In this document: piece by piece, positions 10,050 to 30,344 of the stretch
Layout of the letters: the number at the start of each line of letters is the position of its first letter
Position numbering within the stretch: position 1 is the first letter of the stretch
Source: Marinomonas sp. THO17
Lineage (GTDB): Bacteria; Pseudomonadota; Gammaproteobacteria; Pseudomonadales; Marinomonadaceae
Direction of reading: 5' to 3'
Assembly (NCBI RefSeq): GCF_040436405.1
Contig: NZ_AP031575.1
Span: 562,501 to 626,500 of the forward strand
Length of the DNA stretch: 64,000 bases
Notes under the pieces: model-generated
What the model was told of the DNA's origin: nothing
Database searches by the model: none
What the model saw: the letters and a program-made list of their open reading frames with translations, nothing else
Position numbers and translations under genes: made by a program

Positions 10050-10071
10050 AGCGAAACTAAACTTTGGTCAT

Positions 10072-10100
10072 AAAAACGCGAACATCAGTTCGCGTTTTTT
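10072..10100. terminator. Bidirectional terminator between DAHP synthase gene and nfuA
   Basis: AAAAACGCGAAC (10072-10083) pairs perfectly with GTTCGCGTTTTT (10088-10099) around an ATCA loop, with A and T tracts on both sides. It serves both converging genes. Confidence 0.9.
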
Positions 10101-10121
10101 ATGTAAACCAGAATAATCCAG

Positions 10122-10703
10122 TTACATAAATGCGTTTTCTGTCACCGTATGGTCAGTTGCGTCTTTTACTGCTTTCAAGCCTGGCACTTTTTCGATCAAA
10201 GTTTTCTCAACCCCCTCTTTCAGAGTCAAGTCTACTGCACTACAACCTTGGCAGCCGCCACCAAATTTTAGAATAGCGACTTCACCATCCACTACTTCTA
10301 ATAAACTCACTTCACCACCGTGAGCTGCCAGACCTGGATTAATTTCAGAATACAGAACGTAATTAATTTGATCTTCAATTGGGCTATCCGCTGTGACTTT
10401 TGGCATTTTTGCATTCGGCGCCTTAATGGTTAATTGGCCACCCATTTTCTCAGTTGCATAATCAATAAATGCTTCATCTAAGAAATTCACCGAATTTTTT
10501 TCTACATAAACTTTTAGTTTAGGTAGATTCAAAATTTCATCAGTAGGATTTACTTCATCAGGGCGACAATAAGCCAAGCAGGTTTCAGCATAAGGCGTAC
10601 CAGGCTGTTGGATAAAAATACGTACAGCCATACCTTCTACGCCTTGTTTCTCAAGCAAAGAAGCCAAATATTCTTGAGCGGCATCAGTAATAATAATGTT
10701 CAT
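10122..10703 (-). CDS. nfuA: Fe/S biogenesis protein NfuA
   Basis: Carrier that receives [4Fe-4S] clusters and hands them to client enzymes, important under oxidative stress or iron limitation. The N-terminal degenerate A-type domain starts [17 protein letters not shown] and includes [15 protein letters not shown]. The C-terminal Nfu domain has the cluster ligands in [11 protein letters not shown] (Cys151 and Cys154). The chosen ATG at 10703 matches the E. coli NfuA N-terminus; a TTG two codons upstream is less likely. The length of 193 residues fits. Its neighbour is the siroheme/4Fe-4S sulfite reductase gene, divergent, which is a plausible client but unproven. Confidence 0.96.
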
Positions 10704-10828
10704 ATACAACCTTAAAAACTGGGTTACGATTAATAAGCTATATATTACCGCAGATAGGAGATAATGCCAAAGACCTAGTAAAAAACTAAGGTATTTTTCC
10801 TTGATTTATTGAGAGCCTTTCTCATTAG

Positions 10829-10894
10829 AAATATTCAAATAAGCCTTATTAGCAAAAACCCTAAAGATATAGATAAATATTCATTTTTCGAATA
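10829..10894. promoter_or_regulatory. Candidate operator sites upstream of cysI
   Basis: Two copies of AAATATTCA occur at 10829-10837 and 10875-10883. The second begins an inverted repeat, TATTC (10878-10882), 7-nt spacer, GAATA (10890-10894), ending 57 bp before the cysI start. In an AT-rich promoter region this could be a CysB or another sulfur regulator site. The reading rests on symmetry and context only. Confidence 0.3.
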
Positions 10895-10951
10895 AAGAGT
10901 TTTTGCTAGTATCACGATACTTAAAATTTGTTAATCACGGTTCAATTCAAT

Positions 10952-12613
10952 ATGTATCAATACGACGCCATTGACCAACAGCTTGTTGAAGAGCGTGTTG
11001 CCCAATTTCGCGACCAAACACGTCGCTATTTAAATAAAGAGTTAAGCGAGCAAGAATTCCTGCCATTACGCTTACAAAATGGTCTTTACGTACAGCGTTA
11101 TGCTCCTATGTTACGTATTGCTATCCCATACGGTATGTTGTCTAGTGTTCAGCTACGCAAACTGGCTGACATCAGTCGTCGTTATGACAAAGCATACGGC
11201 CACTTTAGCACTCGTCAGAATCTTCAACTAAACTGGCCAAAACTGGAAGATGTACCAGACATTCTTGCCGAACTGGCCGAAGTAGAAATGCACGCTGTAC
11301 AAACCAGTGGTAACTGTATTCGTAACACCACCACAGACCAATACGCTGGTGTTATTTCTGATGAAGTAGTTGACCCTCGCCCATACTGCGAACTGATTCG
11401 TCAGTGGTCTACCTTCCACCCAGAGTTTGCTTTTCTACCTCGCAAATTCAAAATTGCTGTCAATGCTACTGAGTCCGCTGACCGTGCAGCCACTCAAGTA
11501 CATGACATTGGTTTGCATATTAAGAAAAATGACGCAGGTGAAATTGGTTTTAAAGTTATTGTGGGTGGCGGCTTGGGACGTACCCCCATGGTTGGCGTAA
11601 CCATCAGTGAATTTATTCCTCGTGAAGATTTACTCACTTATCTTGATGCTATTATCCGCGTTTATAATCAACAAGGCCGCCGTGACAACAAATACAAGGC
11701 GCGCATCAAAATTCTGGTAAAAGCACTTGGTATTGAAGAATTCCGTCGCCGTGTTGATGCCGAATGGGCTCACCTACGTGGAAAAGAAAGCACAGTACCG
11801 ATGAGCGAATTTGATCGTTTGGCGTCTTTCTTTACTGAGCCGGCTTACGAATCTCTTGATAATCAACCTGTCGAGTTAAGCAATAAGATTGCAGAAAGCG
11901 CTGGCTTTGCTCGCTGGTACGAGCGAAATACATTCGAGCATAAGAAAGCTGGTTATCGCATTGTTACTCTCACTTTGAAAAAAGCCGGCCAAGCACCAGG
12001 CGATGCAACGGCTGAGCAAATGATCAAAGCCGCCGATCTTGCTGATCGTTTCAGCTTCGGTGAATTACGCGTCAGTCATGAGCAAAACCTAGTTTTGGCA
12101 GATGTTCGTCAAGACCAATTGGTTGAACTTTGGGAAGCAGCAAAAGAAGCTGGTTTCGCAACCCCAACCCTAGGTCTACTGACAGATATGATTTGCTGTC
12201 CTGGTGGTGATTTCTGCGCCTTGGCCAATGCGAAGTCCATTCCAATTGCCGCTCAAATCCAAGAAACTTTTGATGACCTGGATTACCTGTACGATCTTGG
12301 CAACATAGATCTAAACATATCAGGCTGTATGAACGCCTGTGGCCATCACCACGTGGGCAACATTGGTATTTTGGGTGTCGATAAGAAAGGCGAAGAGTTT
12401 TACCAAGTATCCATTGGCGGCGCATCAGGTCATGACGCTAGCATTGGTAAAATCTTAGGCCCCTCTTTCGCACAAGAAGAAATCAGCGGCGTTATTCAGA
12501 AACTCATGCAGGTTTATCTTGATAATCGTTCATCAGAAGAGCGTTTTATTGATACCTTCCGTCGCATGGGGATCGCACCATTTAAGGAGGCTGCATATGC
12601 CAAAACTAATTAA
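10952..12613 (+). CDS. cysI: Nitrite/sulfite reductase, CysI-type (pseudomonad form)
   Basis: Six-electron reduction of sulfite to sulfide for cysteine synthesis, using coupled siroheme and [4Fe-4S]. The protein of 553 residues from the ATG at 10952 has two ferredoxin-like half domains (near residues 55-125 and 310-380) and siroheme domains. The cluster ligands are in CCPGGDFC (Cys416 and Cys422) and SGCMNACGHH (Cys459 and Cys463). The TRQNLQLNW segment is also typical. A TTG start eight codons upstream is possible but less likely. It overlaps the DUF934 gene by 17 bp, the same cysI-DUF934 arrangement as in Pseudomonas. The electron donor (ferredoxin or a flavoprotein) is not encoded next to it. 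Confidence 0.94.
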   Translation: MYQYDAIDQQLVEERVAQFRDQTRRYLNKELSEQEFLPLRLQNGLYVQRYAPMLRIAIPYGMLSSVQLRKLADISRRYDKAYGHFSTRQNLQLNWPKLEDVPDILAELAEVEMHAVQTSGNCIRNTTTDQYAGVISDEVVDPRPYCELIRQWSTFHPEFAFLPRKFKIAVNATESADRAATQVHDIGLHIKKNDAGEIGFKVIVGGGLGRTPMVGVTISEFIPREDLLTYLDAIIRVYNQQGRRDNKYKARIKILVKALGIEEFRRRVDAEWAHLRGKESTVPMSEFDRLASFFTEPAYESLDNQPVELSNKIAESAGFARWYERNTFEHKKAGYRIVTLTLKKAGQAPGDATAEQMIKAADLADRFSFGELRVSHEQNLVLADVRQDQLVELWEAAKEAGFATPTLGLLTDMICCPGGDFCALANAKSIPIAAQIQETFDDLDYLYDLGNIDLNISGCMNACGHHHVGNIGILGVDKKGEEFYQVSIGGASGHDASIGKILGPSFAQEEISGVIQKLMQVYLDNRSSEERFIDTFRRMGIAPFKEAAYAKTN

Positions 12614-13073
12614 AGACGGCATCATTACAGAAAGCCCATTTGAATGGCAGCAAGATGCAGAAGCAAGCAGCAATGCAAATAGTATTGTTGCCGCTCAAAA
12701 ATGGTTATCTGAAAAAGATACTATTGGCAAAGTGGCCGGCATTTGGCTTGACGCAGGTGATGGTACTGAGATCCTCGAAGACATCAAGCTAGATCAATTT
12801 GCAGTGATTGGCGTCAATTTTCCAGCTTTTGCTGATGGTCGCGGTTTCAGTTATGCACGCCTGTTACGAGAACGCTTTAATTATCAAGGCGAAGTGCGAG
12901 CACTGGGTAGCTTCATCCCAGATCAACTTGGTTATCTATTACGCGTCGGCTTCAATAGCTTCCAATTTGGCGAAGAAGTGGATTTAGAAAAAGCCTTATT
13001 ACTTCACAAACCTTTTTCTGTTGCTTACCAAGGTGATGTCGCGGACCCTCGACCTTTGTTTTTACGTCGCTAA
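12597..13073 (+). CDS. DUF934 protein, partner of CysI
   Basis: A 158-residue protein of the DUF934 family, regularly encoded after cysI in pseudomonads and related bacteria and presumed to help sulfite reductase. It shows the family stretch FPAFADGRGFSYARLLRER and GDVADPRPLF. The start is fixed by AAGGAGG at 12584-12590 in front of the ATG at 12597, inside the cysI coding region. The overlap and strong ribosome site imply coupled translation. No catalytic residues are established for the family. The expected cysH (PAPS/APS reductase) does not follow here. Confidence 0.92.
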   Translation: MPKLIKDGIITESPFEWQQDAEASSNANSIVAAQKWLSEKDTIGKVAGIWLDAGDGTEILEDIKLDQFAVIGVNFPAFADGRGFSYARLLRERFNYQGEVRALGSFIPDQLGYLLRVGFNSFQFGEEVDLEKALLLHKPFSVAYQGDVADPRPLFLRR

Positions 13074-13142
13074 CGTATATTTACATGGTAATTTAGCCAG
13101 CAATCTATCCTTGCGATCAACTTCATTAACCAATTATCACAT

Positions 13143-13167
13143 AAAAGGCCATTTCAATGGCCTTTTT
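13143..13167 (+). terminator. Intrinsic terminator after cysI-DUF934
   Basis: AAAAGGCCAT and ATGGCCTTTT flank a short TTCA-type loop and are followed by further T residues, 70 bp after the DUF934 stop. Confidence 0.75.
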
Positions 13168-13234
13168 CTATTGCGTCTTGCCTAAGTCATGATTATCGTT
13201 GTAAAAGATCGATTCATTGTGAAAGGAATACCAC

Positions 13235-13900
13235 GTGACAAAGACGCACATCATCAGCCTATTATTAGGCAGTGTTTTATCAACTGCAGTACCTGCAGCT
13301 ACTGTTTATGTTTCTGACATTCAATTCGTTGCTATTCGAGAAGGACAAGATAATAGCACCAGAGCCGTTGAACGTGGCATTAAAAGCGGTACCCCACTTG
13401 AAGTACTTGAACAAGCCAATGGCTACACTAAGGTTCTAACACCCAGTGGCAACGAAGGCTGGGTGGCGGATTACTACTTATCCGATGACATGGTGACACG
13501 CGATCAACTCAATGAATTGCAAAAACGCCTAACCAGCGCCATCAAACGCCGTAATGAAATCAGCGATGAATTACGCGCAAGCCAACAAAAAAATCAGACT
13601 CTGCTTTTCGCACAACAAAGTCTTGAGCAAGAAAATGCCTCCCTTAAACAGCAGTTGGAAGATGTACAAGCTTTAGCAGAAAAGGCCGAAATCATTGTTT
13701 CTCAAAATGATACCGTTAGTTACCAAATCGAAAGCCTGCAGCAACAGGCAAATATTGCTCAGAAAAACAGCTTAAAAATACATAACAACCATCAACAGAA
13801 ATGGTTCATTATTGGCGCTGCCACCTTATTCGGCGGACTCCTTCTAGGCATATTGGCCCCCCTATTACGTCGTAAAAAAATCGCTAACGCTAATTGGTAA
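13235..13900 (+). CDS. TIGR04211-type SH3 domain / coiled-coil membrane protein (YgiM-like)
   Basis: A 221-residue protein with the architecture of the TIGR04211 family (E. coli YgiM type): signal peptide (about 1-22, ending VPAA), bacterial SH3 domain (about 23-87, ending EGWVADYYLS), long coiled coil (about 90-185), one transmembrane helix (about 190-212) and a basic cytoplasmic RRKK tail. The periplasmic SH3 domain suggests contact with peptidoglycan or an envelope protein, but the function is not established. The start is GTG at 13235 preceded by AAAGGAA. It lies 14 bp before the antiporter gene, so the two are probably one operon. Confidence 0.85.
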   Translation: MTKTHIISLLLGSVLSTAVPAATVYVSDIQFVAIREGQDNSTRAVERGIKSGTPLEVLEQANGYTKVLTPSGNEGWVADYYLSDDMVTRDQLNELQKRLTSAIKRRNEISDELRASQQKNQTLLFAQQSLEQENASLKQQLEDVQALAEKAEIIVSQNDTVSYQIESLQQQANIAQKNSLKIHNNHQQKWFIIGAATLFGGLLLGILAPLLRRKKIANANW

Positions 13901-13914
13901 TTTGAGGAGCGAAC

Positions 13915-15087
13915 ATGCTGGAAGTGTCGATTGTCCACTCCTTTTTTCTGATTTTTGCTGGAGCGGCTGTCGTAGCTTCCATTGCTCTATATACAAGACA
14001 ACCCATGATCATAGCCTACATTGCGTTAGGCATTTTATTTGGTCCATCCGCCCTTTCTCTCATTAACGAACCCAAGCTAATGGATGAAATGAGCCACATA
14101 GGCATTATTTTCTTGCTCTTCCTATTGGGTTTGGACATGCAGCCTAGCCATTTACTCAATATGCTTAAAAAAGCCTCTTGGGTAGCTTTACTGAGTTCCG
14201 CCATTTTTGCTGGACTGGGTTATCTGGTATCCATTTCTTTCGGTTACAGTCAAATGGAAAGCTTGATTATTGGTGTGGCAATGATGTTTTCCAGCACCAT
14301 TGTTTGTATCAAGTTACTGCCCACCACAGTACTTCACCACAAACATACTGGTGAATTGGTCGTTGGCTTATTGTTATTACAAGACATTATCGCCATTGCC
14401 GTTTTACTCGTGCTATACAGCAGTTCTGGAACAGCGGAAAATAGCCTAATGCAATACCTAAAGCCGCTACTCGGTTTACCCTTATTAATCGCCGCCTCAT
14501 TTGTGTTTGTGAAATACATTCTACTGAAACTCATCACGCGTTTTGATCGCTTTCATGAATACATTTTTCTAGTATCGATTGGCTGGTGTTTATCCCTAGC
14601 CGTACTGGCAGAAACTGCTGGCTTATCAGCAGAAATGGGGGCTTTCATCGCTGGCGTAAGCTTAGCAACCAGCCCAATTTCACAGTACATTGCCACTCAT
14701 CTCAAACCATTACGTGATTTCTTTTTGATCTTGTTTTTCTTTTCCATTGGCGCCAGCTTTAATTTGGACCTACTAAAAGCGGTCATTTTACCTGCACTTG
14801 TCTTGGCGATTGGTGCCATCTTGGTCAAACCAGTGGTGTTTCGCTATCTACTACAGGGCATAAAAGAAGAAACCAGTACAGCGTGGGAAGCGGGTTTTCG
14901 CCTTGGTCAAGTAAGCGAGTTTTCGCTACTGATTGCTTACTTAGCGGCAAGCATTGGCTTTTTGGGTCAAGAGGCCTCTCATGTTATTCAAGCAACCGCC
15001 ATTTTGAGTTTTGCCTTATCTACCTATGTGGTCATATTAAACTACCCGTCTCCTATCGCCATCTCAGATAAATTGCGCAAAGATTAA
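13915..15087 (+). CDS. CPA2-family monovalent cation:proton antiporter
   Basis: Inner-membrane sodium/hydrogen-exchanger-family protein of 390 residues with about 12 to 13 hydrophobic segments. Family marks include GILFGPSALSLI near residue 40, FLLFLLGLDMQP, SSTIVCIKLLP, LLLQDIIAIAVLL (the Gln-Asp pair of the ion site) and GLSAEMGAFIAGVSLA. It stops after the membrane domain: there is no C-terminal TrkA-N/RCK domain as in KefB or KefC, so nucleotide- or glutathione-gated control is not expected. The GAGGAG ribosome site precedes the ATG. The ion (potassium or sodium) cannot be decided. It is paired with the SH3 membrane protein gene. Confidence 0.9.
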   Translation: MLEVSIVHSFFLIFAGAAVVASIALYTRQPMIIAYIALGILFGPSALSLINEPKLMDEMSHIGIIFLLFLLGLDMQPSHLLNMLKKASWVALLSSAIFAGLGYLVSISFGYSQMESLIIGVAMMFSSTIVCIKLLPTTVLHHKHTGELVVGLLLLQDIIAIAVLLVLYSSSGTAENSLMQYLKPLLGLPLLIAASFVFVKYILLKLITRFDRFHEYIFLVSIGWCLSLAVLAETAGLSAEMGAFIAGVSLATSPISQYIATHLKPLRDFFLILFFFSIGASFNLDLLKAVILPALVLAIGAILVKPVVFRYLLQGIKEETSTAWEAGFRLGQVSEFSLLIAYLAASIGFLGQEASHVIQATAILSFALSTYVVILNYPSPIAISDKLRKD

Positions 15088-15091
15088 TCGC

Positions 15092-15114
15092 AAAGCCTTA
15101 TTCTATAAGGCTTT
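15092..15114 (+). terminator. Terminator after the antiporter gene
   Basis: AAAGCCTTA (15092-15100) pairs with TAAGGCTTT (15106-15114), just after the antiporter stop; the T-run is short. Confidence 0.65.
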
Positions 15115-15223
15115 TATACATTGAAACTGGTATTTATGAATTGCTTCTGGCTCACCCCTTTCTTTAATCCCATAAAATATAATAGAATAGCGCGAAATAT
15201 ATGGCCCTCCATGAGAAGTCCTG

Positions 15224-15229
15224 TATAAT
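15224..15229 (+). promoter_or_regulatory. Probable -10 element of the fusA2 promoter
   Basis: A perfect TATAAT lies 39 bp upstream of the EF-G start. The hexamer 17 bp upstream of it is only a weak -35 match. A second TATAAT at 15178-15183 is an alternative. Confidence 0.4.
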
Positions 15230-15268
15230 AACGCGCAAATTTCGTCCTCACTTATTTAGAGTAATGTA

Positions 15269-17356
15269 ATGGCTGACTTATCAAAATACAGAAATATCGG
15301 TATTTTTGCCCACGTTGATGCGGGTAAAACAACCACAACTGAACGTATTCTTAAACTAACTGGTAAAATCCATAAAACTGGTGAAGTTCATGATGGCGAA
15401 TCTACTACTGACTTCATGGAACAGGAAGCAGAACGAGGTATTACCATTCAGTCTGCTGCCGTCACTTGTGAGTGGAAACAGCACCGCCTAAACGTTATCG
15501 ACACACCTGGACACGTTGATTTCACAGTTGAAGTATACCGTTCGCTTAAAGTACTAGACGGTGGTATCGGTGTATTCTGTGGTTCTGGTGGTGTTGAGCC
15601 TCAGTCAGAAACGAACTGGCGTTACGCTAACGAATCAGAAGTTGCTCGTGTTATTTTCGTCAACAAGCTAGACCGTCTAGGTGCTAACTTCTATCGTGTG
15701 GTAGAGCAAGTTAAGAAAGTACTAGGTGCTAACCCACTTGTTATGACGCTTCCTATCGGTGAAGAAGACGAATTTGTTGGTGTTGTAGACGTTCTTTCTA
15801 AGAAAGCTTTCGTTTGGGATGATACTGGTCTTCCTGAAAACTACAGCATCGAAGACGTTCCTGCTGACATGGTAGACAAAGTTGAAGAATACCATGAAGC
15901 TTTGATCGAAACGGCTCTTGAGCAAGATGAAGATTTGTTGATGGCTTACCTTGAAGATGGTGAAGTTCCAGCTATCGAAGACATCAAGCGTTGTATCCGT
16001 AAAGGTACTCGTGACCTTGCATTCTTCCCAACTTACTGTGGTTCTGCCTTTAAAAACAAAGGTGTTCAGCTTGTACTTGATGCGGTTGTAGATTACCTAC
16101 CTAACCCAACTGAAGTTGACCCACAAGAATTGACTGACGAAGAAGGCAACCCAACTGGTGAAGTGGCAACCGTTAGTGCAGACGAGCCACTAAAAGCATT
16201 GGCATTCAAAATCATGGATGACCGTTTTGGTGCACTTACCTTCGTTCGTATTTACTCTGGTCGTATTCAGAAAGGTGACACTATCCTTAACTCTGCGACT
16301 GGCAAAACTGAACGTATTGGTCGCATGGTTGAGATGCAAGCTGACGACCGTAACGAGATCTCTTCAGCGCAAGCTGGTGACATCATCGCCATCGTTGGTA
16401 TGAAGAACGTACAAACAGGTCACACTCTTTGTGATCCTAAAAACCCTTGCACACTTGAGGCAATGGTTTTCCCAGAGCCAGTAATCTCTATCGCTGTTCA
16501 GCCAAAAGACAAAGGCGGTAACGAGAAAATGGGTATCGCAATCGGTAAAATGGTTGCAGAAGATCCATCTTTCCAAGTGGAAACAGACCAAGATTCTGGC
16601 GAAACTATCTTGAAAGGTATGGGTGAACTTCACCTAGATATCAAAGTAGATATCTTGAAGCGTACTTACGGCGTAGATCTAATCGTTGGCCAACCTCAAG
16701 TTGCTTACCGCGAAACCATTACGCAAGAAATCGAAGATACTTACACGCACAAGAAACAATCTGGTGGTTCTGGTCAGTTCGGTAAGATCGACTACCGTAT
16801 CAAACCAGGTGAGCCTAACTCTGGCTTCACATTCAGCTCAAGCGTTGTGGGTGGTAACGTTCCTAAGGAATTCTTCCCTGCTGTTGAGAAAGGCTTTAAG
16901 TCTATGATGGAGCAAGGTGTTCTAGCTGGTTACCCAGTTCTGGACGTTGAAGTTGAGTTGTTCGACGGTGGTTACCACGCAGTTGACTCCTCTGCTGTAG
17001 CCTTCGAAATCGCTGCTAAGGGCGCTTTCCGCCAATCTATGCCTAAAGCGGGTGCACAACTTCTTGAGCCTATCATGAAAGTTGACGTATTCACTCCAGA
17101 TGACAACGTTGGTGATGTAATTGGTGACTTAAACCGTCGTCGCGGCATGATCAAAGACCAAGAAGCTGGCCTAACTGGTGTACGCATTAAAGGTGAAGTA
17201 CCACTATCTGAAATGTTCGGATACATTGGTCACCTACGTACTATTACTTCTGGTCGTGGTCAGTTTTCTATGGAATTTGCGCACTATGCACCATGCCCTG
17301 CAAACGTTGCTGAAACTGTCATCGCTGCAGCCAAAGAGAAAAACGAAAAAGCTTAA
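15269..17356 (+). CDS. fusA: Translation elongation factor G, EF-G2 type
   Basis: Ribosomal translocation GTPase of 695 residues with all five EF-G domains: G1 loop [13 protein letters not shown], switch region [22 protein letters not shown], domain II, the RETI segment of domain IV start, and the C-terminal [16 protein letters not shown]. The variant AHVDAGK (canonical EF-G has AHIDAGK) and the overall sequence closely resemble the second EF-G of Vibrio species as I recall it. It stands alone with its own promoter and terminator, away from any rpsL-rpsG-tuf genes, which supports the EF-G2 identity. Codon choice is strongly biased (GGT, CGT, GTT, GAA), suggesting high expression. The division of labour with the canonical EF-G is unknown here. 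Confidence 0.93.
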
Positions 17357-17382
17357 TTCATAGCTTATTTGTTAATGATTCC

Positions 17383-17411
17383 AAAAAACCGATGCTTGCA
17401 TCGGTTTTTTT
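17383..17411 (+). terminator. Intrinsic terminator after fusA
   Basis: AAAAAACCGATG pairs with CATCGGTTTTTT around CTTG, followed by more T residues. It is perfect and lies 26 bp after the stop. Confidence 0.92.
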
Positions 17412-17452
17412 GTATCTGCAATTTGGATTTGAGACAGAAACATAAAGCATAA

Positions 17453-17475
17453 AAAAACCGGCAATGCCGGTTTTT
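17453..17475 (-). terminator. Intrinsic terminator after the aldo-keto reductase gene
   Basis: AAAAACCGGC (17453-17462) and GCCGGTTTTT (17466-17475) pair around AAT. The T-run on the minus strand follows the aldo-keto reductase stop at 17527; the hairpin is symmetric and could also act on the plus strand. Confidence 0.85.
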
Positions 17476-17526
17476 ATTTTACTTACGTTAAACTAAGCAC
17501 ATCATAGGGAATGACGTCATCAGCCA

Positions 17527-18579
17527 TTAAAATGGCACAGGATACTCTTTGAACACCGCCATAACGTCTTGCAGGGCTTTTTCTGATAATTCAAGATCAA
17601 AGGCAGACATATCTTCTTTGAGCTGTGCTAATGACGTTGCCCCTATAATGGTTGATGTCACACCGTCCACTTGATCGCACCAGGCCAATGCCAACTGAGC
17701 CGCTGTCATGCCATGGGCTTTTGCCACTTCCACATAAGCCGAAACCGCTTTATCCACCATTGGCGTATCACGGAATAAACCATTACGCTGCGCATAACTC
17801 CAACGACTGCCTGCTGGACGAGCCCCTCCTAAATACTTACCTGTTAATGCTCCCGCTGCTAATGGCGACCAAGGTAAATAAGCCACATCTTGGTGTACAC
17901 AATTTTCAATCAAATACGGCCAATCTTTAGCATGCAATAAACTAAATTCATTTTGTATCGATGCCACTCGTGGCAGATTGTGTTTTTCACTTAAACGCAA
18001 GTATTCATTAATTCCCCAAGTGGTATCGTCAGACAAACCAAAATGACGAATTTTACCTGCTTTTACACAAGCCTCTATACCTTGCAAAATATCCAACATT
18101 TGATTGGAATGATCTTCACCATTTACATCTGTAAAGCGGAAATTATTAGGGAAATGCTTACCAAAATGAGGAGAGGTACGATTAGGCCAGTGCAATTGAT
18201 ACAGGTCGATATAATCCGTTTGTAGACGTTTCAGAGAATCCTCTACCGCGATAATGACAGACTTACCGGTAATGGGGCAACCATCACGAACATAGCCTAA
18301 ACCTGGACCGGCAATTTTTGTCGCCAAGACAAAGTCATCGCGACGGGATGGATTACGAGATAACCAGTCACCAATAATGGTTTCTGTTTTACCATAGGAT
18401 TTAGGTGTTGGCGGTACAGAATACATTTCCGCCGTATCCATAAAGTTAACACCATGTTCTAAGGCATATTCAATTTGCTCATCAGCATCCGCTTGAGTGT
18501 TTTGCGTTCCCCATGTCATGGTCCCCAAACAAACGCGTGAAACCTCCAAGCCGGTTCGGCCTAATGGCACATATTTCAT
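17527..18579 (-). CDS. Tas-type NADP(H)-dependent aldo-keto reductase
   Basis: A 350-residue (beta/alpha)8 barrel oxidoreductase. The catalytic tetrad is visible as Asp48 and Tyr53 (NFMDTAEMYSVP), Lys88 (FVLATKIAG) and His130 (YQLHWPNR). The start MKYVPLGRTGLEVSRVCLGTM and the SVPPTPKSYGKTE stretch match E. coli Tas closely. Tas was found to complement a tyrosine-biosynthesis defect in E. coli under starvation, but its physiological substrate is not settled. It is a monocistronic-looking gene with its own terminator. The gap of about 106 bp to the peroxidase gene upstream leaves separate transcription likely. Confidence 0.92.
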   Translation of the reverse strand: MKYVPLGRTGLEVSRVCLGTMTWGTQNTQADADEQIEYALEHGVNFMDTAEMYSVPPTPKSYGKTETIIGDWLSRNPSRRDDFVLATKIAGPGLGYVRDGCPITGKSVIIAVEDSLKRLQTDYIDLYQLHWPNRTSPHFGKHFPNNFRFTDVNGEDHSNQMLDILQGIEACVKAGKIRHFGLSDDTTWGINEYLRLSEKHNLPRVASIQNEFSLLHAKDWPYLIENCVHQDVAYLPWSPLAAGALTGKYLGGARPAGSRWSYAQRNGLFRDTPMVDKAVSAYVEVAKAHGMTAAQLALAWCDQVDGVTSTIIGATSLAQLKEDMSAFDLELSEKALQDVMAVFKEYPVPF

Positions 18580-18685
18580 TATTCACATCCTTCTTATTAA
18601 AAAAAGAAAAATTCAATGTAAACAGAAATCGTCCCACTACACCAGTTTTATCAATGAAAACAATGAGGACTTGCGACTCTCCTCA

Positions 18686-19888
18686 CTAAAAATGGCTAGC
18701 CCCTTCATCAGACTCTAACAAAGATTCATAGCGTTGATCTGTCAAGGTCTTCAAGAAAGCGACGATGGCGTCTACTCTTTGATCCGGTAATGCTGGTCCT
18801 TTTTCAAGTTCCTCAAAATCAATATTCGCCGTCACTTCTGGGTCACCCCAAGGTTTATTCGTTTCGGGATTAATGGTGCGTTTAGGGTTATTGTACTTAT
18901 CGTAAAACAAAACGACGGTGCGCAAATCTTTGAATACCCCATTGTGCATATAAGGACCAGTAACAGCCACATTACGTAAACTCGGCACTTTAAACTTACC
19001 CGCCTGTTTTTCATCATGAATATCAGGATTATCCAGTAACCCCTTATCCACTGTTCCTGTATGCGTATACAAGGCTGGATTCACTGGAACACCTATATTG
19101 CGATACTCATAATTGGTAAAGGTTTCCTGAGGATTCAGAGGCGAAGTGTGTAACTGATGACAAGCATTACAATTAGTAAACTGTTGTGAGAAAAACAGGG
19201 TCTTACCCAGTTCTTCTTGTGGTGTCAGCTTTATTTCACCGCGCAATGCCCTATCGTATCTCGAATCAAAAGGCATAAAGAGTTTCGTTTTCTCAAAGCT
19301 TGCGATGGCATCCGCTATGGCATTGTAGCCCGCTTCTGTATCATCCAATACCCCATCGCTATATAGGCTATTAAAACGTTCAATATAAGAAGGATTCTCT
19401 TTAACGCGCTCGACAACCGCAGCACTATCCGATAACGCCATTTCAAGAGGATTAATGAATGGCCCTTGTGCTTGTTCAACTAACCCTGAAGCACGTCCAT
19501 CCAAGAATTGACCGCCACGGTATTCGCCATTGGCCATCTGATGAAACGCAGGCGAAAAAGCAGCATAACCAGCTGTTGGAGCATTACGCCCCCCCATAGA
19601 CAGCCCATCACTGCCCAACGAGACAGCACCATCCAAGGCGTCTGTTCGCTTATCAACAAAAGCGGTAGCAATTGCGTGACAGGTACCACAGGACTGATTG
19701 CGCTCTTTTGAAAGATTAGTATCAAAAAACAGCTGTGAACCTAGTAAGGCTTTGGGGTCAGTTGAAGCCACAGGTAACTCGTTAGCAGCTTGGTGCTGCT
19801 GTGACGTTGCCGCCACATCCAATTTAGATGACTCGTTACAAGCCGTTAATAAAAATACCGCGATTAAACCCAACGAAAGACGTAACAT
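18686..19888 (-). CDS. Di-heme cytochrome c peroxidase / MauG-family lipoprotein
   Basis: Periplasmic di-heme c-type enzyme family that reduces hydrogen peroxide or oxidises protein residues. Two heme attachment sites are visible: SCGTCH (residues near 68-73) and CNACH (near 240). The GGRNAPTAGYAAFSP segment and PYMHNGVFKDL (near 315) are family marks. The N-terminus has a lipobox, LLTAC with Cys17, so it is predicted to be a lipoprotein anchored facing the periplasm. The length of 400 residues is typical. A Fur-like site lies upstream, suggesting iron control. Whether it is a true peroxidase or a MauG-like enzyme cannot be told from sequence alone. Confidence 0.9.
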   Translation of the reverse strand: MLRLSLGLIAVFLLTACNESSKLDVAATSQQHQAANELPVASTDPKALLGSQLFFDTNLSKERNQSCGTCHAIATAFVDKRTDALDGAVSLGSDGLSMGGRNAPTAGYAAFSPAFHQMANGEYRGGQFLDGRASGLVEQAQGPFINPLEMALSDSAAVVERVKENPSYIERFNSLYSDGVLDDTEAGYNAIADAIASFEKTKLFMPFDSRYDRALRGEIKLTPQEELGKTLFFSQQFTNCNACHQLHTSPLNPQETFTNYEYRNIGVPVNPALYTHTGTVDKGLLDNPDIHDEKQAGKFKVPSLRNVAVTGPYMHNGVFKDLRTVVLFYDKYNNPKRTINPETNKPWGDPEVTANIDFEELEKGPALPDQRVDAIVAFLKTLTDQRYESLLESDEGASHF

Positions 19889-20261
19889 GAAAAACTACTC
19901 AAGACTCAGTTGAAAATTTGCAGAGCATAATACACCCTTAAAAAAAACCAGTAAAACAATGACAATCATTATTACTAAATTTCTCTGTAAAAAACTCAAA
20001 AACACGATTTATATCAAGTTATGAGATATCAATGAAATATTTCTGTGCAGCTTATTAAGTATCACAAACCAAGTTACTGATTAATAGCATAAAAATGCTC
20101 CTAATCAGTGCTTCGTAAAGCTTAGATGCTCAATATTGAACGAAGTTTTAAGTTTCTGTTTTTATTAATTTTTTACAACTTACTTACATGATTATTCCCA
20201 TTTATCTGGGGAAAACTTTTGCACCAGTTGCAAGCATGAGTGACCCCATCTGAATTTATCA
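19889..20261. other. Gene-free 373-bp region between sbcC and the peroxidase gene
   Basis: No coding potential was seen. It contains the Fur-like site at 19955-19973, a direct repeat of the type TTGATAT (minus strand, about 20010-20030) and an imperfect TTCCCA...TGGGGAA hairpin at 20194-20212 that may terminate sbcC. The sequence is strongly AT-rich. Confidence 0.6.
19955..19973. promoter_or_regulatory. Candidate Fur box upstream of the di-heme peroxidase gene
   Basis: The 19 bases match the E. coli Fur consensus (GATAATGATAATCATTATC) at 15 positions, with the core AATGACAATCATTAT intact apart from one base. It is 67 bp upstream of the peroxidase start codon, compatible with overlap of its promoter. 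Confidence 0.55.
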
Positions 20262-23200
20262 TTAAGTTTCATTGACAGCGTACTCTGATGCCAAACGACT
20301 AACCCCTAAACCACTTTGCTTGGTGAGTTTTATTTGCACTGGAATCCGCTCCTTCAAAGCGCTGATGTGGCTAATGATACCTATGGTTTTACCCGATGAA
20401 TGCAGATTATCTAAAGCATCTAGAGCCGACTCTAAGGTTTCACTGTCCAAAGTGCCAAAGCCTTCATCTAAGAAAAGTGAGTCAATACTGGTTTTGTGAG
20501 AAACCAAATCGGACAAAGCCAAGGCCAAAGCCAAACTGACTAAGAAAGACTCACCTCCAGACAAGGTTTTGGTGTCTCGTTTGGCATCCGCCTGCCAAGT
20601 ATCAAGTACTTCAAGAGACAATGTGTCTTCCTCACGGCGCTTTAATTGATAACGACGATGCAATACCAGCAAATGCTGGTTAGCCAAATACACTAAATGA
20701 TCCAATGTTAGACTCTGCGCAAAACGTCTAAACTTAGCGCCATCCGCCGAACCGATCACATAATTAAGACGCTCTAGATGAATAAAATCCGCACGTTTTT
20801 TATCTAGCTCATCAAGCAAACTGGCGACTTGCTCAGTGCGCTTTGCTTCTTGTTTCAGTTGTTCAGTTACCACGCCCCATTCGCGATGCATGGCTTGTTG
20901 TTGTGACTGTAAATCATCTCGCTTTACTCTCAATGCATCGAGATTCAGCGCTAATAAGGATGGATCAGCAAGATCTTTTTGCAATGCTTGATGTTGTTGC
21001 ACACTTTGCTGAGCCTGATCGAATAAGGTTTGCTGTTGTGCCAATTGAGTCTGTAAGGCTTTATCCCTTTCTTGCCATTGTTCGAGTTGCTCAGGTGAAA
21101 CGCGAGCGTTTTGCCAACTTTGCTCATCAGTGAAACCTACTTTATTAAGACTGGATAGCCACTTAGGCAGCAAAACTTGTTCACTTTGCTGCTGTTTTTC
21201 AATGTTAGTTTGAAGAGACTTAAGCTCAGTATTCAGGGCCAATAAGGCATCTTGTAACCTCTGCCATTCGACTTGCTGAGTTTGTTGTTCCAACTCAGCA
21301 TTCGCCAATTTCTCCTTCTTCGCTTGTTGCAATGAATCGATCGTCTCTTCCCCTAGTAACTCAAATAAGGAAGCACGCAAGTGAGCAAGCTCTTGTTCTA
21401 ATTCCTTATACTTATCATGGGCTTTTTTAAGATGAATTTGGCTTTCTTCTGAATCGGATTTCAGCTTACTTTGCTCAAATTGTTCCTGATTTCGTGCTTG
21501 AATAAGCTGATCCTGTGTGGCTTTGGCCTCTTTCCAACTGACGACATCCTGCTGTAAACGAGTTAATACTTGATCCATAGGTTGATCAAGCTTAGCCTTT
21601 GACACCCCAGCTTGCTGCATTGCAGACTGCAAAGCTTGTTCAGACTGAGTAATGTTATTCAATAGATGGTTTTGTTGTGCCTGCTCAGTTTCCAAGGCTT
21701 GCTTGGCTAACTGAAGATGCGATTCTAACTCAGCCAAACGCGCTGCATAATTTTGTTGTTGCTCTTGTAAAGCTTGCAATGCTTTTTCGAGTTCTACGAC
21801 GCGCTTGTGTTGCTGTAGAACCTTTGGCTGTATTTGCTCAAGGTTGAGCCAAGCTTGAATATAAGTCTCAACCTGCTGTTGATTAATGGCCACATCAAGC
21901 TCTTGATTTGGGTTATTTTCGACAAAATGGGCTGACAAGCCTAAGCTCGATAATAGGGACAAGACTTGCAGCTTTCTTTGTTCTTGCTGGTCTTGCAAAC
22001 TTGCTAGTTGTTGACCAAGTAACGCCACCTCTTTAGCTAACAGCTTTTCATCTGCCGCTAAATTCAGGCCTTGCTGTTTCATTGCTTCTAAAGACTGATT
22101 CAAGCTGATCAACTGCTGCTGATGACCTGAATCTTGTTGATACAAGGCTTGATGCAACTCATGCTGCGGTGAACCGCATAATGGGCAAGCTTGGCCTTCA
22201 TGCAATTGCTCACGAAGGGCGGTTAACGCAATAATATGACGCTCCGCTTCCACCAATTGCTCCAGACTTTTCTGATGGGCCGCTTGTTCCTTATAGATTT
22301 GGCGAGCCTCTACTAGCTGTTGCTTTATGTTGGTTATTTGAGAATTTAACTGTTGGACTCTCTTGTCTAGCTGAGTTTGCTCAAGGGCATTAGCATGATA
22401 ATCCTCTAGTAATTGTTCTATTTGTCGAGCTATTTGCGCCTGTCTTTCTGTTTGCAGAGCTTGATCCGACCAAGTTTGCCAATCTTGTCCTCCAGTTAAC
22501 TGATGAAAATCCTGTAAAGCCTCGGTATAACTCTGCTGTTTGCTTTGCCAAGCATTGGCTGACGTTTCACCCTGCGCCACATGGTCTTTTTGCTGACCAA
22601 GTGCATCCTCATAAACTTGCTGCTTTTGTTGAACTGTCGATCTAGATTGCGCCAACAATTGTTGATTGGCTGACAAGCTATCTAATTGATGTAACCAACT
22701 GGCTAATTCCGCTTCAACCTTCTCCATGCTTTGGTATTGATCAAGCTTTTGTTGGTTTTGCTCAAGGGAAGCGCAAATTTTAGCTAAATCAGCGTCTCGT
22801 TTAGTGGCTTCATTTACAAGCGATTGATGCTTTTGCTGAGCTTGCTCAACAATAACTTTTTGTTCTTCAAGCTGGCGAGACAACCCCTGTTCTTGCAAAA
22901 CCAAAGGCTGAATTTGCTGTTGAATTTTTTGCTGCACTTGTTCAGCTTCTTGTTGGCAAGCTGCCAATTGCGCTTTGCTGCTCTCAAGTCGCTTACTGAC
23001 CTCTTGCTGTGTGTCGAGCCTTTGTTGTTTATTTTTTTCCAGTGCTCGCCGCTCTTCTTGCGACTGGGACAAAGCATCACGAACCTCCACCAGCTTGGTA
23101 AAATCAGATTCAATACTTTGCGCTTTTTGTGACAATTCCATTGCATCTTTCTGATCAGCAAAAGACGACTGAGAAGCCTGCGCCTCTACTAAGGCTTGCT

Positions 23201-27771: not shown

Positions 27772-28062
27772 AAAATGCTCTTACTTCCTATATAAAACCT
27801 TCAAAAATGAATGAGGGTTAGATTAAAGAAGCAATGGAACAGAGGCAATCGAAATTAAGCCTAGCACCATACAGAAAACGCATGCGCAAGCTCTTAAACA
27901 AGTTACACACTCATACCAAGACGTGAAACACAATTAAATTTATTTTGAAATAGCGTTTTATTTTATGGAATCTATTATGAAATTTCGCTAGTATTTTATT
28001 TACTAAGACGATTAGCAAATCAATAAAAGCAAGCAGACCAATAAAAACAATAGGACATGACG
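27772..28062. promoter_or_regulatory. Divergent region between pepD and the pectate lyase gene, with a KdgR-like half-matched box
   Basis: No gene is seen in this AT-rich region of about 290 bp. TGAAA-TAGCG-TTTTA at 27946-27960 differs by one base in the right arm from the TGAAA-N5-TTTCA core of enterobacterial KdgR sites. Since the gene ahead belongs to a pectate lyase family, this could be an operator, but chance agreement in AT-rich DNA is a real alternative. Confidence 0.25.
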
Positions 28063-29724
28063 ATGCAAGCTGTACTGGACTATCTCATTCAATACGCAGA
28101 TACCCTGTTGCGCGATTTTCGCGATCCATATCATAATACGCCTTTGTTTTTTGATGGCTGTAACGCACAAAGCAAACAAGCCGTTAGTTGGAAAAATGTC
28201 GATGGTCGAATTTGGCAACCATCGAACCTTGCAAGCCAGCAAAACCTTTTTCGCTTTTTTGTCGGCTTGTCCAACCTCACCCAAGATGGCAAATACAAAC
28301 AAGCAGCACAAGACGCGATTCAATGGCATTTTGATCATGCCGATGCCAGCGGTCTGATACGCTGGGGCGGTCATTCCTTTATTGATCTAAAAACCCTAGA
28401 TTCGGTTGGCCCAGAAAACAAAAACATGGTGCATGAACTCAAACACCATTGTCCCTTTTATGAACTCATGTATGAAACCGATGCCGCCGCAACTCGTAAG
28501 CTGATCAAGGCCATCTGGAATACACACGTTACCGATTGGCAGCAGATGGAAATGTCTCGTCATGGCCAATATGGATTGGATTTTGAGGAATTAAGCTTTT
28601 GGGACAAGCCAAAACAGGACAATTTACCGCCTTTACGTGAAATGAAAGGTTTATCCTTCGTCAACATAGGGAACGATTTGGTATTCAGTGCCGGTATGCT
28701 CTACGCCCTTGATGGTGATAAAAAAGCCCTGTCATGGGCTGAACATTTAATGAGTCAATACGTCAACAGCCGTCACCCAGATACTCAGCTTGGCTGCTAT
28801 CAATACAATCAACCCCTTAAAACTGGGGATGCTCCGACCGATGAACACCATCCGCAGTACACCTTTTCTTTTTGGGGGGACAGAGCACAAAGGCAGTTTG
28901 GTCCAGAGTACGGCGAGGTCGCCAAAGAAGCTTGGGTATTGTTCAAAGTAGACGAAGAAGCCCTCAACGGCCCCGAAGGTATTTATGGTGACTGCGCTTT
29001 GGCCCAAACCTTATTGGCGAGAGAATTAGGCGAACAGGGTAAACAACTGTTGGATTGGACCACACAAGGTCTAGAAGCCTGGGCCAAATACGCTTACGAT
29101 CCTGCCACCAATGAAATCAAACCTATGTTTGCTGATGGCAAAGACCTCACAGGACACAAGATCCCACGCTATGGTTATTATGGGCAACAAGGCCAAGAAT
29201 TGATTCGCCGTCCTCTGCCTGTTCACGTCTTCCTTGCTTATGTCGCTAACTGGTGTGAGTCTCGAAACCAAGTTCTCTGGTCAACTATTTGCGCCATGGC
29301 CCAGCATTTTGGTCTGGGAGACTGGCAGTCACGTTCAGAGTCAAAACAAGAGAAAGAGAAAGAGCAAGCTACGAAAACAGACGCGCTAAAGGATCCACTT
29401 TTACTCTTTGCTACCTTAGAAATGTATCGCGCCACCCAACACGCTTTCTATTTGGCCTTGGCCGATCGACTGGCCATCGATTTGTTCGAACAAACCGCTC
29501 ATCATGGTCTGTTTATGCCATCGTCAGAACATCTCTATTGTCGATTCGACGAGGTAACGCCACTTGCCCTACTCACTTGGATGGCGCATAAAAATGGTAA
29601 TCCTGAACAAATCCCCATTTATCGCAGTCGCGGTGGCTACATTCATGGCGACATAGTGCTGGATAACGGCAAGGTGAAAAACATCATGGATGTGAAGTTT
29701 ATTTATGAGCAGAAAAGGTCATAA
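28063..29724 (+). CDS. Family 2 pectate lyase (PL2, PelW/PelY-like), cytoplasmic form
   Basis: Predicted to cleave polygalacturonate oligomers by beta-elimination. The roughly 553-residue protein contains stretches I recognise from enterobacterial PL2 enzymes: QQNLFRFFVGLSNL, GLIRWGGHSFIDLKTLDS, MVHELKHHCPFYELM, MEMSRHGQYG and GDRAQRQFGPEYG. Numbered from the ATG at 28063, His104, Glu125 and His167 correspond to the metal ligands and Arg166 to the catalytic Arg of Yersinia YePL2A, at a constant offset of five (family knowledge from memory). There is no signal peptide, so it resembles the intracellular PelW branch acting on imported oligogalacturonides. The start at 28063 is favoured by AGGA seven bases upstream; an ATG two codons earlier is possible. 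No other pectin or uronate gene is adjacent. An AGE-type epimerase was considered and rejected. Confidence 0.85.
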   Translation: MQAVLDYLIQYADTLLRDFRDPYHNTPLFFDGCNAQSKQAVSWKNVDGRIWQPSNLASQQNLFRFFVGLSNLTQDGKYKQAAQDAIQWHFDHADASGLIRWGGHSFIDLKTLDSVGPENKNMVHELKHHCPFYELMYETDAAATRKLIKAIWNTHVTDWQQMEMSRHGQYGLDFEELSFWDKPKQDNLPPLREMKGLSFVNIGNDLVFSAGMLYALDGDKKALSWAEHLMSQYVNSRHPDTQLGCYQYNQPLKTGDAPTDEHHPQYTFSFWGDRAQRQFGPEYGEVAKEAWVLFKVDEEALNGPEGIYGDCALAQTLLARELGEQGKQLLDWTTQGLEAWAKYAYDPATNEIKPMFADGKDLTGHKIPRYGYYGQQGQELIRRPLPVHVFLAYVANWCESRNQVLWSTICAMAQHFGLGDWQSRSESKQEKEKEQATKTDALKDPLLLFATLEMYRATQHAFYLALADRLAIDLFEQTAHHGLFMPSSEHLYCRFDEVTPLALLTWMAHKNGNPEQIPIYRSRGGYIHGDIVLDNGKVKNIMDVKFIYEQKRS

Positions 29725-29789: not shown

Positions 29790-30344
29790 TTAGAATTGGT
29801 AGCCTACGCCAACGGCTATGTTACTCAAGTCAATGTCAGTAGAATCATCTTCTGCTGCTATCATAGTATATTCTGCAGATAAGCTTAAACTATCAGTTAA
29901 TGCATAATCCAATCCAACACCATAATAAAGATCATTTGAAGAATTGGTTGCTGTGCTCGTACCATCTTCGTCTCTCTCAACACTTTCAATTTCCCATAAA
30001 GCAATACCTGCACGAGCATTTAAGGAAAATTGATCATTTAAGGCAAAGGTTTTTTTAACGCCTAAAGTAAATGCGGAAGTTGAATATTCATAGGTTTCCG
30101 TGTCACCCTCATCTTCTATTTTTGTAGACACATCCCCATAATTTTGAAATGCCGCTTCTGCAGACCATGAATCAGCAAATTCGTAAGCTAAGCGTATAAT
30201 CGAAGAAGTATCGTCATCATTTATAAAGTCGTCAATCTCAAAAGTCGCCTGCCCCACCAACACCTCTGCGGTAAAGGGTTTATCCGCTGCCATTGTCATA
30301 GAAGTACCTGAAATGGCCAACAAGGCAAAAAGCATTTTTTTCAT
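29790..30344 (-). CDS. Small outer-membrane beta-barrel protein (OmpA-like porin-fold family)
   Basis: A 184-residue exported protein. The signal peptide MKKMLFALLAISGTSMTMA is followed by AD at the likely cleavage point. The mature part alternates short amphipathic strands with acidic loops (for example FINDDDTSS, DEGDTETYEYS, EDDSTDIDL) and ends in VGVGYQF, with the C-terminal Phe that outer-membrane barrels use for BamA recognition. About eight strands are expected. The function is unknown; a specific family such as OmpW cannot be assigned. A palindrome 35 bp upstream may control it. Confidence 0.8.
   Translation of the reverse strand: MKKMLFALLAISGTSMTMAADKPFTAEVLVGQATFEIDDFINDDDTSSIIRLAYEFADSWSAEAAFQNYGDVSTKIEDEGDTETYEYSTSAFTLGVKKTFALNDQFSLNARAGIALWEIESVERDEDGTSTATNSSNDLYYGVGLDYALTDSLSLSAEYTMIAAEDDSTDIDLSNIAVGVGYQF

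What the first reader, a model, noticed from the sequence alone, without database searches (positions are those of the whole stretch)
28063..29724. Orphan cytoplasmic family-2 pectate lyase in a marine-type genome
The protein keeps the catalytic Arg and the metal ligands of PL2 enzymes at a constant offset from YePL2A (recalled from the literature) and shares several long motifs. PL2 is known mainly from enterobacterial plant pathogens, where the intracellular form works on imported oligogalacturonides alongside ogl, kdu and kdg genes. Here no uptake or uronate genes flank it, so either these are elsewhere or the enzyme has a different uronate polymer as substrate.
Basis: partly seen in the sequence, partly recalled or inferred. 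Interest (0 to 1): 0.6.

Follow-up and report, generated by a model that had tools for sequence, protein, structure and literature searches.

The report
Scattered pectin-fragment enzyme in seawater bacterium
A marine bacterium carries a lone-looking enzyme for cutting pectin fragments inside the cell; it is probably not alone, because the same kind of control switch and the missing uptake and breakdown genes lie elsewhere in its genome, together with an unexplained transporter that seems to travel with such enzymes.

Summary
The gene at 28063-29724 is a genuine family-2 pectate lyase: full-length PF06917, 657 bits; the PDB matches are YePL2A and a Vibrio vulnificus PL2. Catalytic Arg166 and metal ligands His104, Glu125 and His167 sit at a constant -5 from YePL2A and are invariant in 17 of 17 aligned sequences. 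It is an orphan only in position. The window's one match to a KdgR-type operator pattern lies 117 bp upstream; a like site lies 82-121 bp upstream in 9 of 9 PL2-bearing genus genomes, against 3 of 131 other upstream windows. The same genome encodes KdgR, Ogl, KdgF-like and DhuI-type proteins, a pectinesterase-family protein, KduD, a Tog-like ABC importer and TRAP systems. All 9 PL2 genomes have the Tog-like binding protein and Ogl; 4 of the 39 others do. Most likely it cuts imported oligogalacturonides under KdgR control: ordinary biology, unusual host. The new lead is a MATE transporter behind a like operator, whose Reinekea relatives adjoin PL2; plasmid relatives sit by uronate-lyase-type or kdu genes in 6 of 8 records (4 of 8 counted strictly), against 0 of 6 control MATEs. 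Its substrate is unknown.

The parts
27946..27960 (.). KdgR-type operator palindrome TGAAATAGCGTTTTA, 117 bp before the start codon
   Evidence: Only place matching TRRAAYRNYRTTTYA in the window, found on both strands (shuffles mean 0.21, and 4 of 100 shuffles reached 2 strand-matches). A like site stands upstream of PL2 in 9 of 9 genus genomes; AAA and GTTTTA are invariant in the nine, the four bases between them vary.
28052..28055 (+). likely ribosome-binding site AGGA, 7 nt before ATG 28063
   Evidence: Direct reading; start supported by orthologues beginning Met-Gln.
28063..29724 (+). family-2 pectate lyase (PL2), 553 aa, inferred cytoplasmic and inferred exo-acting on imported oligogalacturonides
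   Evidence: PF06917 657 bits full length; PDB 2v8i and 5a29.
28372..28374 (+). codon of metal ligand His104 (YePL2A His109)
   Evidence: invariant 17 of 17.
28435..28437 (+). codon of metal ligand Glu125 (YePL2A Glu130)
   Evidence: invariant 17 of 17.
28558..28563 (+). codons of catalytic Arg166 and metal ligand His167 (YePL2A Arg171, His172)
   Evidence: invariant 17 of 17.
28870..28875 (+). codons of Phe270-Trp271, at YePL2A Lys291-Phe292 (full-length numbering), the site of the K291W mutant in PDB 6ojk
   Evidence: position 270 is Phe in 15 of 17, Tyr in 1, Lys in 1.

Best explanation
The gene encodes a cytoplasmic PL2 pectate lyase that works on oligogalacturonides brought in by a Tog-like ABC importer. 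It cuts them by metal-assisted beta-elimination, with Arg166 as base and His104, Glu125 and His167 holding the metal, probably from a chain end. Unsaturated dimers and short oligomers then pass to Ogl (PL22), a KdgF-like cupin, a DhuI-type isomerase and KduD. Expression is held down by KdgR bound to the palindrome at 27946-27960 and released when pectin breakdown products accumulate. The pathway is a scattered regulon (five predicted operators at four chromosomal places) rather than one cluster. Shown: family, active-site residues, operator sequence and its conservation, presence of the other genes, co-occurrence. Inferred: substrate, exo mode, repression by KdgR, localisation, the importer's substrate.
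For: Family and active site. Operator: one place in 64 kb; 9 of 9 PL2 genes in the genus have a site with at most 2 mismatches to TGAAACNNNGTTTCA at 82-121 bp (same result with the control's 250-bp window), against 3 of 131 other upstream windows once 7 windows of the divergent peptidase, which share the same intergenic stretch, are set aside (10 of 138 before; Fisher 5e-12, ignoring kinship). Regulator: KdgR equivalog NF011671, 422 bits against a cut-off of 275. Other boxed genes in the same genome: kdgF-dhuI-pectinesterase (1984633), kduD (3155367), MATE (157323) and, weaker, ogl. Pathway: KduD 430 bits against 339; Ogl 554 bits against 30; Tog-like ABC, TRAP DctP/DctM and a KdgD-like dehydratase. 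Co-occurrence: the Tog-like binding protein (E 1e-60 or better) and Ogl occur in the same 13 of 48 genomes, PL2 in 9 of those 13 and in 0 of 35 others (Fisher 4e-7). In Reinekea sp. G2M2-21 the orthologue lies in a pectin locus: ABC genes, SDR/KduD, PfkB, KDPG aldolase, cupin, RpiB/DUF3666, IclR, MATE, PL2, a PL1 lyase. YePL2B/PelW, the cytoplasmic enterobacterial counterpart, is encoded in pelW-togMNAB, a KdgR-regulon operon (PMC5559549 passages), and makes almost only unsaturated digalacturonate (PMC10992409 passage).
Against: No biochemistry. The literature-type pattern has no genome-wide excess: 10 strand-matches against 8 for the reversed control. The second pattern (10 against 4) was drawn after seeing three of the sites, and 6 of its 10 matches are not at recognisable pectin genes (by eye). 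The ABC system is called Tog-like from its place beside kduD: its ATPase fits a sugar-ABC subfamily and its binding protein no oligogalacturonide family. KdgK, KduI, a KdgM porin and secreted pectinases were not searched for in this genome. 7 of 12 fetched kduD loci in the genus lack a box between the binding protein and kduD. The 9 named PL2 loci outside Marinomonas have no such box right upstream (best 3-6 mismatches). The exo mode rests on two positions, and 5a29, named an exopolygalacturonate lyase, keeps Lys where this clade has Phe. For 6 of the 13 Ogl matches the table notes one stop codon inside the match, not examined further; ours has none.
Confidence: 0.85

Rival explanations
1. The enzyme's real substrate is another uronate polymer of the sea, such as alginate or the apiose-bearing galacturonan of seagrass, and KdgR control is shared because the downstream keto-uronates are alike.
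For: The host group is marine. One +1 residue differs from YePL2A (Glu515 to His528). The clade is well separated from YePL2A and 5a29 (100/100, branch 1.21). A seagrass galacturonan with apiose side chains would have the same backbone (recalled, not tested).
Against: Co-occurs with Ogl and the Tog-like binding protein in 9 of 9 genomes; a pectinesterase-family gene lies in the kdgF operon; six of the seven YePL2A active-site and subsite residues checked are kept; in Reinekea it sits with a PL1 pectate lyase. His528 is also found in 5a29, named an exopolygalacturonate lyase.
Confidence: 0.1
2. The conserved palindrome belongs to another IclR-family regulator, and PL2 is not in a KdgR regulon.
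For: IclR-type operators look alike (PMC8222616 passages); the genome holds six matches to the Reinekea IclR-family regulator.
Against: The best match is a KdgR equivalog by NCBIfam lying beside ogl and kdgF; the same kind of box stands before kdgF and kduD.
Confidence: 0.08
3. A relic: a horizontally acquired lyase kept but not used.
For: Only 9 of 48 genus genomes have it; in 6 of 7 named Marinomonas loci it lies at one spot between a peptidase and a glutathione-reductase-like gene.
Against: Intact frame, invariant active site, and an operator kept while much of the surrounding intergenic DNA drifts.
Confidence: 0.03

Closest known systems
YePL2A (PelP), PL2 endo-lyase of Yersinia enterocolitica, PDB 2v8i/2v8j/2v8k/6ojk/6ojl
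   Same: Fold (TM 0.86), 210 identical of 514 aligned residues, catalytic Arg and all three metal ligands.
   Different: YePL2A is periplasmic and endo-acting (PMC5559549, PMC10992409 passages); ours has no signal-like N-terminus, Phe at the Lys291 position and His for Glu515.
YePL2B (PelW), cytoplasmic exo-PL2, KdgR regulon, pelW-togMNAB operon
   Same: Inferred location, role on imported oligogalacturonides, KdgR-type control.
   Different: 387 bits against NCBI's PelW cut-off of 1000; not in an operon with tog; the genome has a DhuI-type isomerase gene. The PelW sequence itself was not compared.
Vibrio vulnificus PL2 (PDB 5a29)
   Same: A PL2 of a Vibrio; same catalytic residues and the His at 528.
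   Different: 190 identical of 523 residues; long branch apart.
Pectin locus of Reinekea sp. G2M2-21 (L010)
   Same: Orthologous PL2 (64%), KdgR-like IclR (63%), KduD (79%), KdgF-like and DhuI-like genes; the MATE (48%).
   Different: One contiguous locus with a PL1 lyase; here the genes lie at four places in the chromosome.
Alginate utilisation locus of Vibrio sp. C42 (PMC13390454)
   Same: Also holds a MATE gene among uronate-lyase and GntR-regulator genes.
   Different: Its authors list that MATE as not apparently related and did not study it (passage); its sequence was not compared here.

Membership tests
Polysaccharide lyase family 2 / PF06917 | Profile match over the whole domain, above the curated cut-off | tested here: met
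   656.9 bits against 26.6, positions 1-491 of 491
Polysaccharide lyase family 2 / PF06917 | Catalytic Arg and His/Glu/His metal site | tested here: met
   Arg166, His104, Glu125, His167; invariant 17 of 17; by alignment, distances in the model not measured
Polysaccharide lyase family 2 / PF06917 | (alpha/alpha)7 barrel | tested here: met
   Foldseek TM 0.86 to 2v8i; several stretches, chiefly 266-293 and 295-301, have pLDDT under 50
Polysaccharide lyase family 2 / PF06917 | Beta-elimination of polygalacturonate with a transition metal | not testable with these tools
   Needs purified protein
PelW (NF041904 equivalog) | Score above the NCBI cut-off | tested here: not met
   387 against 1000 bits
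PelW (NF041904 equivalog) | Cytoplasmic, exo-acting | tested here: inconclusive
   No hydrophobic N-terminus; aromatic residue at the K291W site; mode not assayed
Periplasmic PL2 (PelP / YePL2A type) | Signal peptide | tested here: not met
   Best 15-residue hydropathy mean 0.68 in the first 60 residues; no dedicated predictor run
KdgR regulon | KdgR orthologue in the genome | tested here: met
   NF011671 422 against 275 bits, C1:1984836-1985627
KdgR regulon | Operator upstream, conserved in relatives | tested here: met
   9 of 9 genus PL2 genes; not in the 9 named PL2 loci outside Marinomonas
KdgR regulon | KdgR binds and represses | not testable with these tools
   Needs gel shift and expression data
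Uronate-lyase-linked MATE subfamily (proposed) | Clade apart from other MATEs | tested here: met
   10 of 16 rows, 100/100, branch 5.42; the other six rows are few and long
Uronate-lyase-linked MATE subfamily (proposed) | Neighbours are uronate lyase or kdu genes | tested here: inconclusive
   6 of 8 plasmid records against 0 of 6 controls (Fisher 0.0097); without the two records that rest on an unscanned DUF4962 annotation, 4 of 8 (Fisher 0.085); 3 of 4 genus paralogue loci show no such gene by eye

The most novel reading that the evidence does not exclude
The MATE gene that carries the same kind of KdgR operator as this lyase belongs to a subfamily that is a regular partner of bacterial uronate lyases, pectate and alginate alike. 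It moves a lyase product, most likely exporting surplus unsaturated uronate or its reactive keto-aldehyde form so that intracellular depolymerisation does not poison the cell. A 'multidrug' family would thus hold a dedicated sugar-acid safety valve or transporter.
Probability: 0.33. Interest if true: 0.65.

Novelty: new member of a known kind. Interest (0 to 1): 0.4.

Why it matters
It turns a lone annotation into a testable pathway: a minority of this marine genus (9 of 48 genomes) carries a PL2 lyase that goes with a KdgR-type switch and with pectin-fragment genes dispersed over the chromosome, a link invisible from gene neighbourhood alone. It also gives a concrete, cheap hypothesis for a transporter family of which one published study of an alginate locus may have set a member aside as unrelated. 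If the MATE does move lyase products, it may explain how bacteria that depolymerise uronates inside the cell cope with reactive keto-uronates.

Tried and rejected
Other-polymer reading: set low because Ogl, a pectinesterase-family gene and KdgR go with the lyase.

Genome-wide operator scan as proof: rejected on its own. The literature-type pattern shows no excess over its reversed control. Two of its six distinct places matter (PL2 and MATE); the other four show no pectin gene by eye. The argument rests on conservation across species instead.

One MATE subfamily for all PL2 loci: rejected. The MATEs near PL2 in Vibrio tritonius pMA35 and Cetobacterium somerae are only 22-23% identical to ours and fall elsewhere in the tree. 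The Vibrio one is YeeO-like; the one other YeeO-like plasmid locus looked at has no pectin genes annotated nearby. So adjacency there is a separate, weaker observation. The haloarchaeal PL2 plasmid loci (5 of 5 records fetched) show GH28 and further pectate-lyase genes but no annotated MATE, in gene tables that are incomplete; the unnamed protein beside one of them has no Pfam match.

PL2 outside Marinomonas: no operator right upstream in the 9 named loci L008-L013 and L015-L017 (best 3-6 mismatches; one search had mispicked some starts). In L010 an exact match to the first pattern stands 296 bp before a large PL1-like gene.

Consensus scan around the gene: no sigma-70-like site (shuffles mean 3.0) and 4 terminator-like sites (shuffles mean 2.0, sd 1.4); not used.

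Not tried or not possible: KdgK, KduI, KdgM porin and secreted pectinases in this genome (genome search cap reached); the genome-wide count of MATE neighbours; PelW sequences.

Literature: ten searches. 'Marinomonas' with 'KdgR' gave 0 papers. Only open-licence PMC papers are held, so absence is weak evidence. Papers seen as passages: PMC5559549, PMC8222616, PMC10992409, PMC6537148, PMC13390454, PMC7953866; abstract and passages: PMC12838403; others as listings only. PMC7953866, on a marine pectin user, does not contain the word PL2. Rodionov 2004 (KdgR regulon) and the JBC 2015 PL2 paper were not read; what is said of them is recalled or second-hand.

Full report
WHAT IS THERE. Window 28063-29724 (+) encodes a 553-residue protein matching PF06917 over its whole length (656.9 bits, cut-off 26.6). 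phmmer against the PDB gives five distinct sequences at E 0.01: YePL2A and variants (2v8i, E 1.2e-117) and 5a29 (E 4.6e-95). An AlphaFold model from 17 aligned sequences has pTM 0.88 and mean pLDDT 80.3, weak chiefly at 266-293 and 295-301; Foldseek ranks five PL2 chains first, TM 0.83-0.87 by query length. Residue numbers for YePL2A come from passages of PMC10992409. The mapping agrees with PDB 6ojk and 6ojl, whose titles name K291W and R194K and whose chains carry those changes at the aligned columns, besides a few other differences from 2v8i. Arg166, His104, Glu125, Lys127, His167 and Arg274 are kept, invariant in 17 of 17 sequences; Glu515 is His528, His in 16 of 17.

MODE OF ACTION. The YePL2A position mutated in 6ojk (Lys291 to Trp) is Phe270 here, aromatic in 16 of 17. 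I recall that exo-acting PL2 enzymes differ there, but did not find that paper in the library. 5a29, named an exopolygalacturonate lyase, keeps Lys, so exo action is only an inference.

WHERE IT LIVES. The closest named relatives are Marinomonas (85-86% identity for the best two; found). In 6 of 7 named Marinomonas loci the gene lies between a peptidase and a glutathione-reductase-like gene; in L004 only the latter is there (by eye). The window's genome (G000, one contig, 3,920,899 bases) has this one PF06917 gene. Among 48 genomes of its genus 9 have it; in 369 genomes drawn from the class, 2 pass the cut-off, one of them ours. In a tree of 19 rows the 16 proteobacterial sequences form one group (100/100) apart from YePL2A, 5a29 and a Bacillota row; long branches make deeper placement unsafe. 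On plasmids, PL2 genes at 29-35% identity occur in 7 records: Vibrio tritonius, Cetobacterium somerae and five haloarchaeal ones.

THE SWITCH. Searching the window for a recalled KdgR consensus gave one place, 27946-27960, 117 bp before the start codon. Published consensus sites agree in form (passages). In all 9 PL2-bearing genus genomes a match with at most two mismatches to TGAAACNNNGTTTCA stands 82-121 bp upstream (again with the narrower control window). Of 138 other upstream windows in 7 loci and this window, 10 had such a match; 7 of those are the divergent peptidase sharing the same intergenic DNA, leaving 3 of 131. In the alignment of the nine upstream regions AAA and GTTTTA are invariant, the four bases between them vary, and much of the flanks drifts, though other short stretches, some next to the peptidase, are also conserved. 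Genome-wide the pattern itself shows no excess (10 against 8 for the reversed pattern), so conservation, not counting, carries the argument. The named Marinomonas rows fall into two related groups, so the Fisher values overstate independence. The 9 named PL2 loci outside Marinomonas have no such site right upstream.

THE MISSING PATHWAY. At C1:1982505-1987063: a pectinesterase-family protein without hydrophobic N-terminus, a RpiB/DUF3666 protein (DhuI belongs to the RpiB/LacA/LacB family: PMC12838403 passage), a KdgF-like cupin (named from its place and its Reinekea counterpart; Pfam says only cupin), a box (TGAAAAAGCGTTTCA) upstream of it, KdgR (equivalog NF011671) and, divergent, Ogl (PF14583, 554 bits) with a weaker box CGAAACAGCTTTTCA 118 bp before its likely start. 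L-rhamnose genes lie alongside (by eye). At C1:3144248-3159822: a TRAP transporter, a uronate-dehydrogenase-like protein (by eye; Pfam Epimerase), a 5-dehydro-4-deoxyglucarate dehydratase (over the NF002958 cut-off, just under that of TIGR03249), an aldehyde dehydrogenase, a Tog-like ABC system, a box (TGAAAAGCTGTTTCA), KduD (equivalog), and a second TRAP system. KduD and KdgR are 79% and 63% identical to the Reinekea proteins. The Tog-like binding protein and Ogl occur in exactly the same 13 of 48 genus genomes; PL2 in 9 of the 13 and none of the 35. In G045 and G020 kdgR, kdgK, kduD, tog and ogl genes form one cluster (by eye), so the layout varies within the genus. Two matches to the KDPG aldolase family are present. 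KdgK, KduI, porin and secreted pectinases were not searched for in this genome.

THE REINEKEA KEY. In L010 (Reinekea sp. G2M2-21) the orthologue lies in a pectin locus: ABC genes, SDR/KduD, PfkB, KDPG aldolase, cupin, RpiB/DUF3666, IclR, MATE, PL2, a PL1 lyase (PF00544) and a further large PL1-like protein not scanned. MATE and PL2 overlap by 4 bp there; in R. blandensis (L008) a MATE ends 9 bp before PL2. In the other 14 of 16 named loci tblastn with our MATE found none within the flank.

THE MATE. In our genome the MATE orthologue (48% to Reinekea; next best 23%) is at C1:157353-158726, its first possible start codon 30 bp after the beginning of another KdgR-type box, TGAAATGCTGTTTTA, which had turned up blind. 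Orthologues (70-74%) exist in three other genus genomes, all with PL2 (4 of 9 with PL2, 0 of 39 without); two of these have a box with 2 mismatches and one with 3, 60-62 bp upstream. Paralogues at 39-43% occur in two genomes without PL2 and have no box (4-6 mismatches); one of those four loci has a PL7 alginate lyase 4.5 kb away, the others show no such gene by eye. The box lies between the MATE and a divergent xylose-isomerase gene (by eye) and might serve either. On plasmids, all 8 records with a relative at E below 1e-40 were examined with 6-7 kb flanks. Six have a uronate-lyase-type or kdu gene there: Vibrio THAF190c (PF05426 and a KdgM porin), V. penaeicida (PL7, KdgM), Jannaschia (DUF4962 with heparinase-type domain, KduI, cupin), Limimaricola (PL7, KduD), and, on an unscanned DUF4962 annotation alone, Tropicibacter and strain SC52. 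Falsirhodobacter has ABC, GntR and TRAP genes only; Photobacterium has none recognised. Of the 12 records matching a different MATE I examined 5, and of 18 for a YeeO-like MATE 1: none of these 6 has such a gene annotated. V. tritonius itself, among the 18, does have pectin genes and is not one of the 6. The controls are from other taxa and were chosen by me among annotated records, so the contrast (Fisher 0.0097; 0.085 on the strict count of 4 of 8) is suggestive only. A published Vibrio alginate locus contains a MATE described as not apparently related to alginate use and not investigated (PMC13390454 passage).

VERDICT. A real, ordinary PL2 lyase in an uncommon host, most likely embedded in a scattered KdgR regulon for pectin fragments. 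The part that would surprise a specialist is the MATE partner, which needs a proper genome-wide count and a transport assay.

Noticed in passing
G000:C1:157353-158726 (L024:7354-8727): MATE transporter gene just behind a KdgR-type box; its relatives adjoin uronate-lyase-type or kdu genes in 6 of 8 plasmid records, 4 of 8 on a strict count.
   Followed up: partly
window 29790-30344 (-): A 184-aa outer-membrane beta-barrel protein (PF13505/PF01389) just downstream of the lyase on the other strand; similar frames lie beside PL2 in L003 and L004. Not a KdgM match.
   Followed up: partly
window 3301-4170 (+): A protein that looks like an SMP-30/gluconolactonase (by eye, not scanned) with TGAAACATCTTTACA 93 bp upstream; possibly the lactonase step of oxidative galacturonate breakdown, or one of the chance matches.
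   Followed up: no
G000:C1:1510693-1510818: A 42-residue stretch 62% identical to Reinekea KduD, broken by three stop codons: apparently a remnant of a second kduD.
   Followed up: no
L110 (Vibrio tritonius pMA35) 9107-21554: Plasmid-borne pectin locus: KdgM-family porin, ABC importer, PL2, a YeeO-like MATE, an SSF symporter and an oligogalacturonate lyase in a row.
   Followed up: partly
L112-L116, haloarchaeal plasmids: PL2 genes at 29-32% identity in five haloarchaeal plasmid records, beside GH28 and further pectate-lyase genes and, in two, an IclR regulator.
   Followed up: no
L012, L017: PL2 in Candidatus Dactylopiibacterium, which I recall as a symbiont of the plant-sucking cochineal insect.
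   Followed up: no
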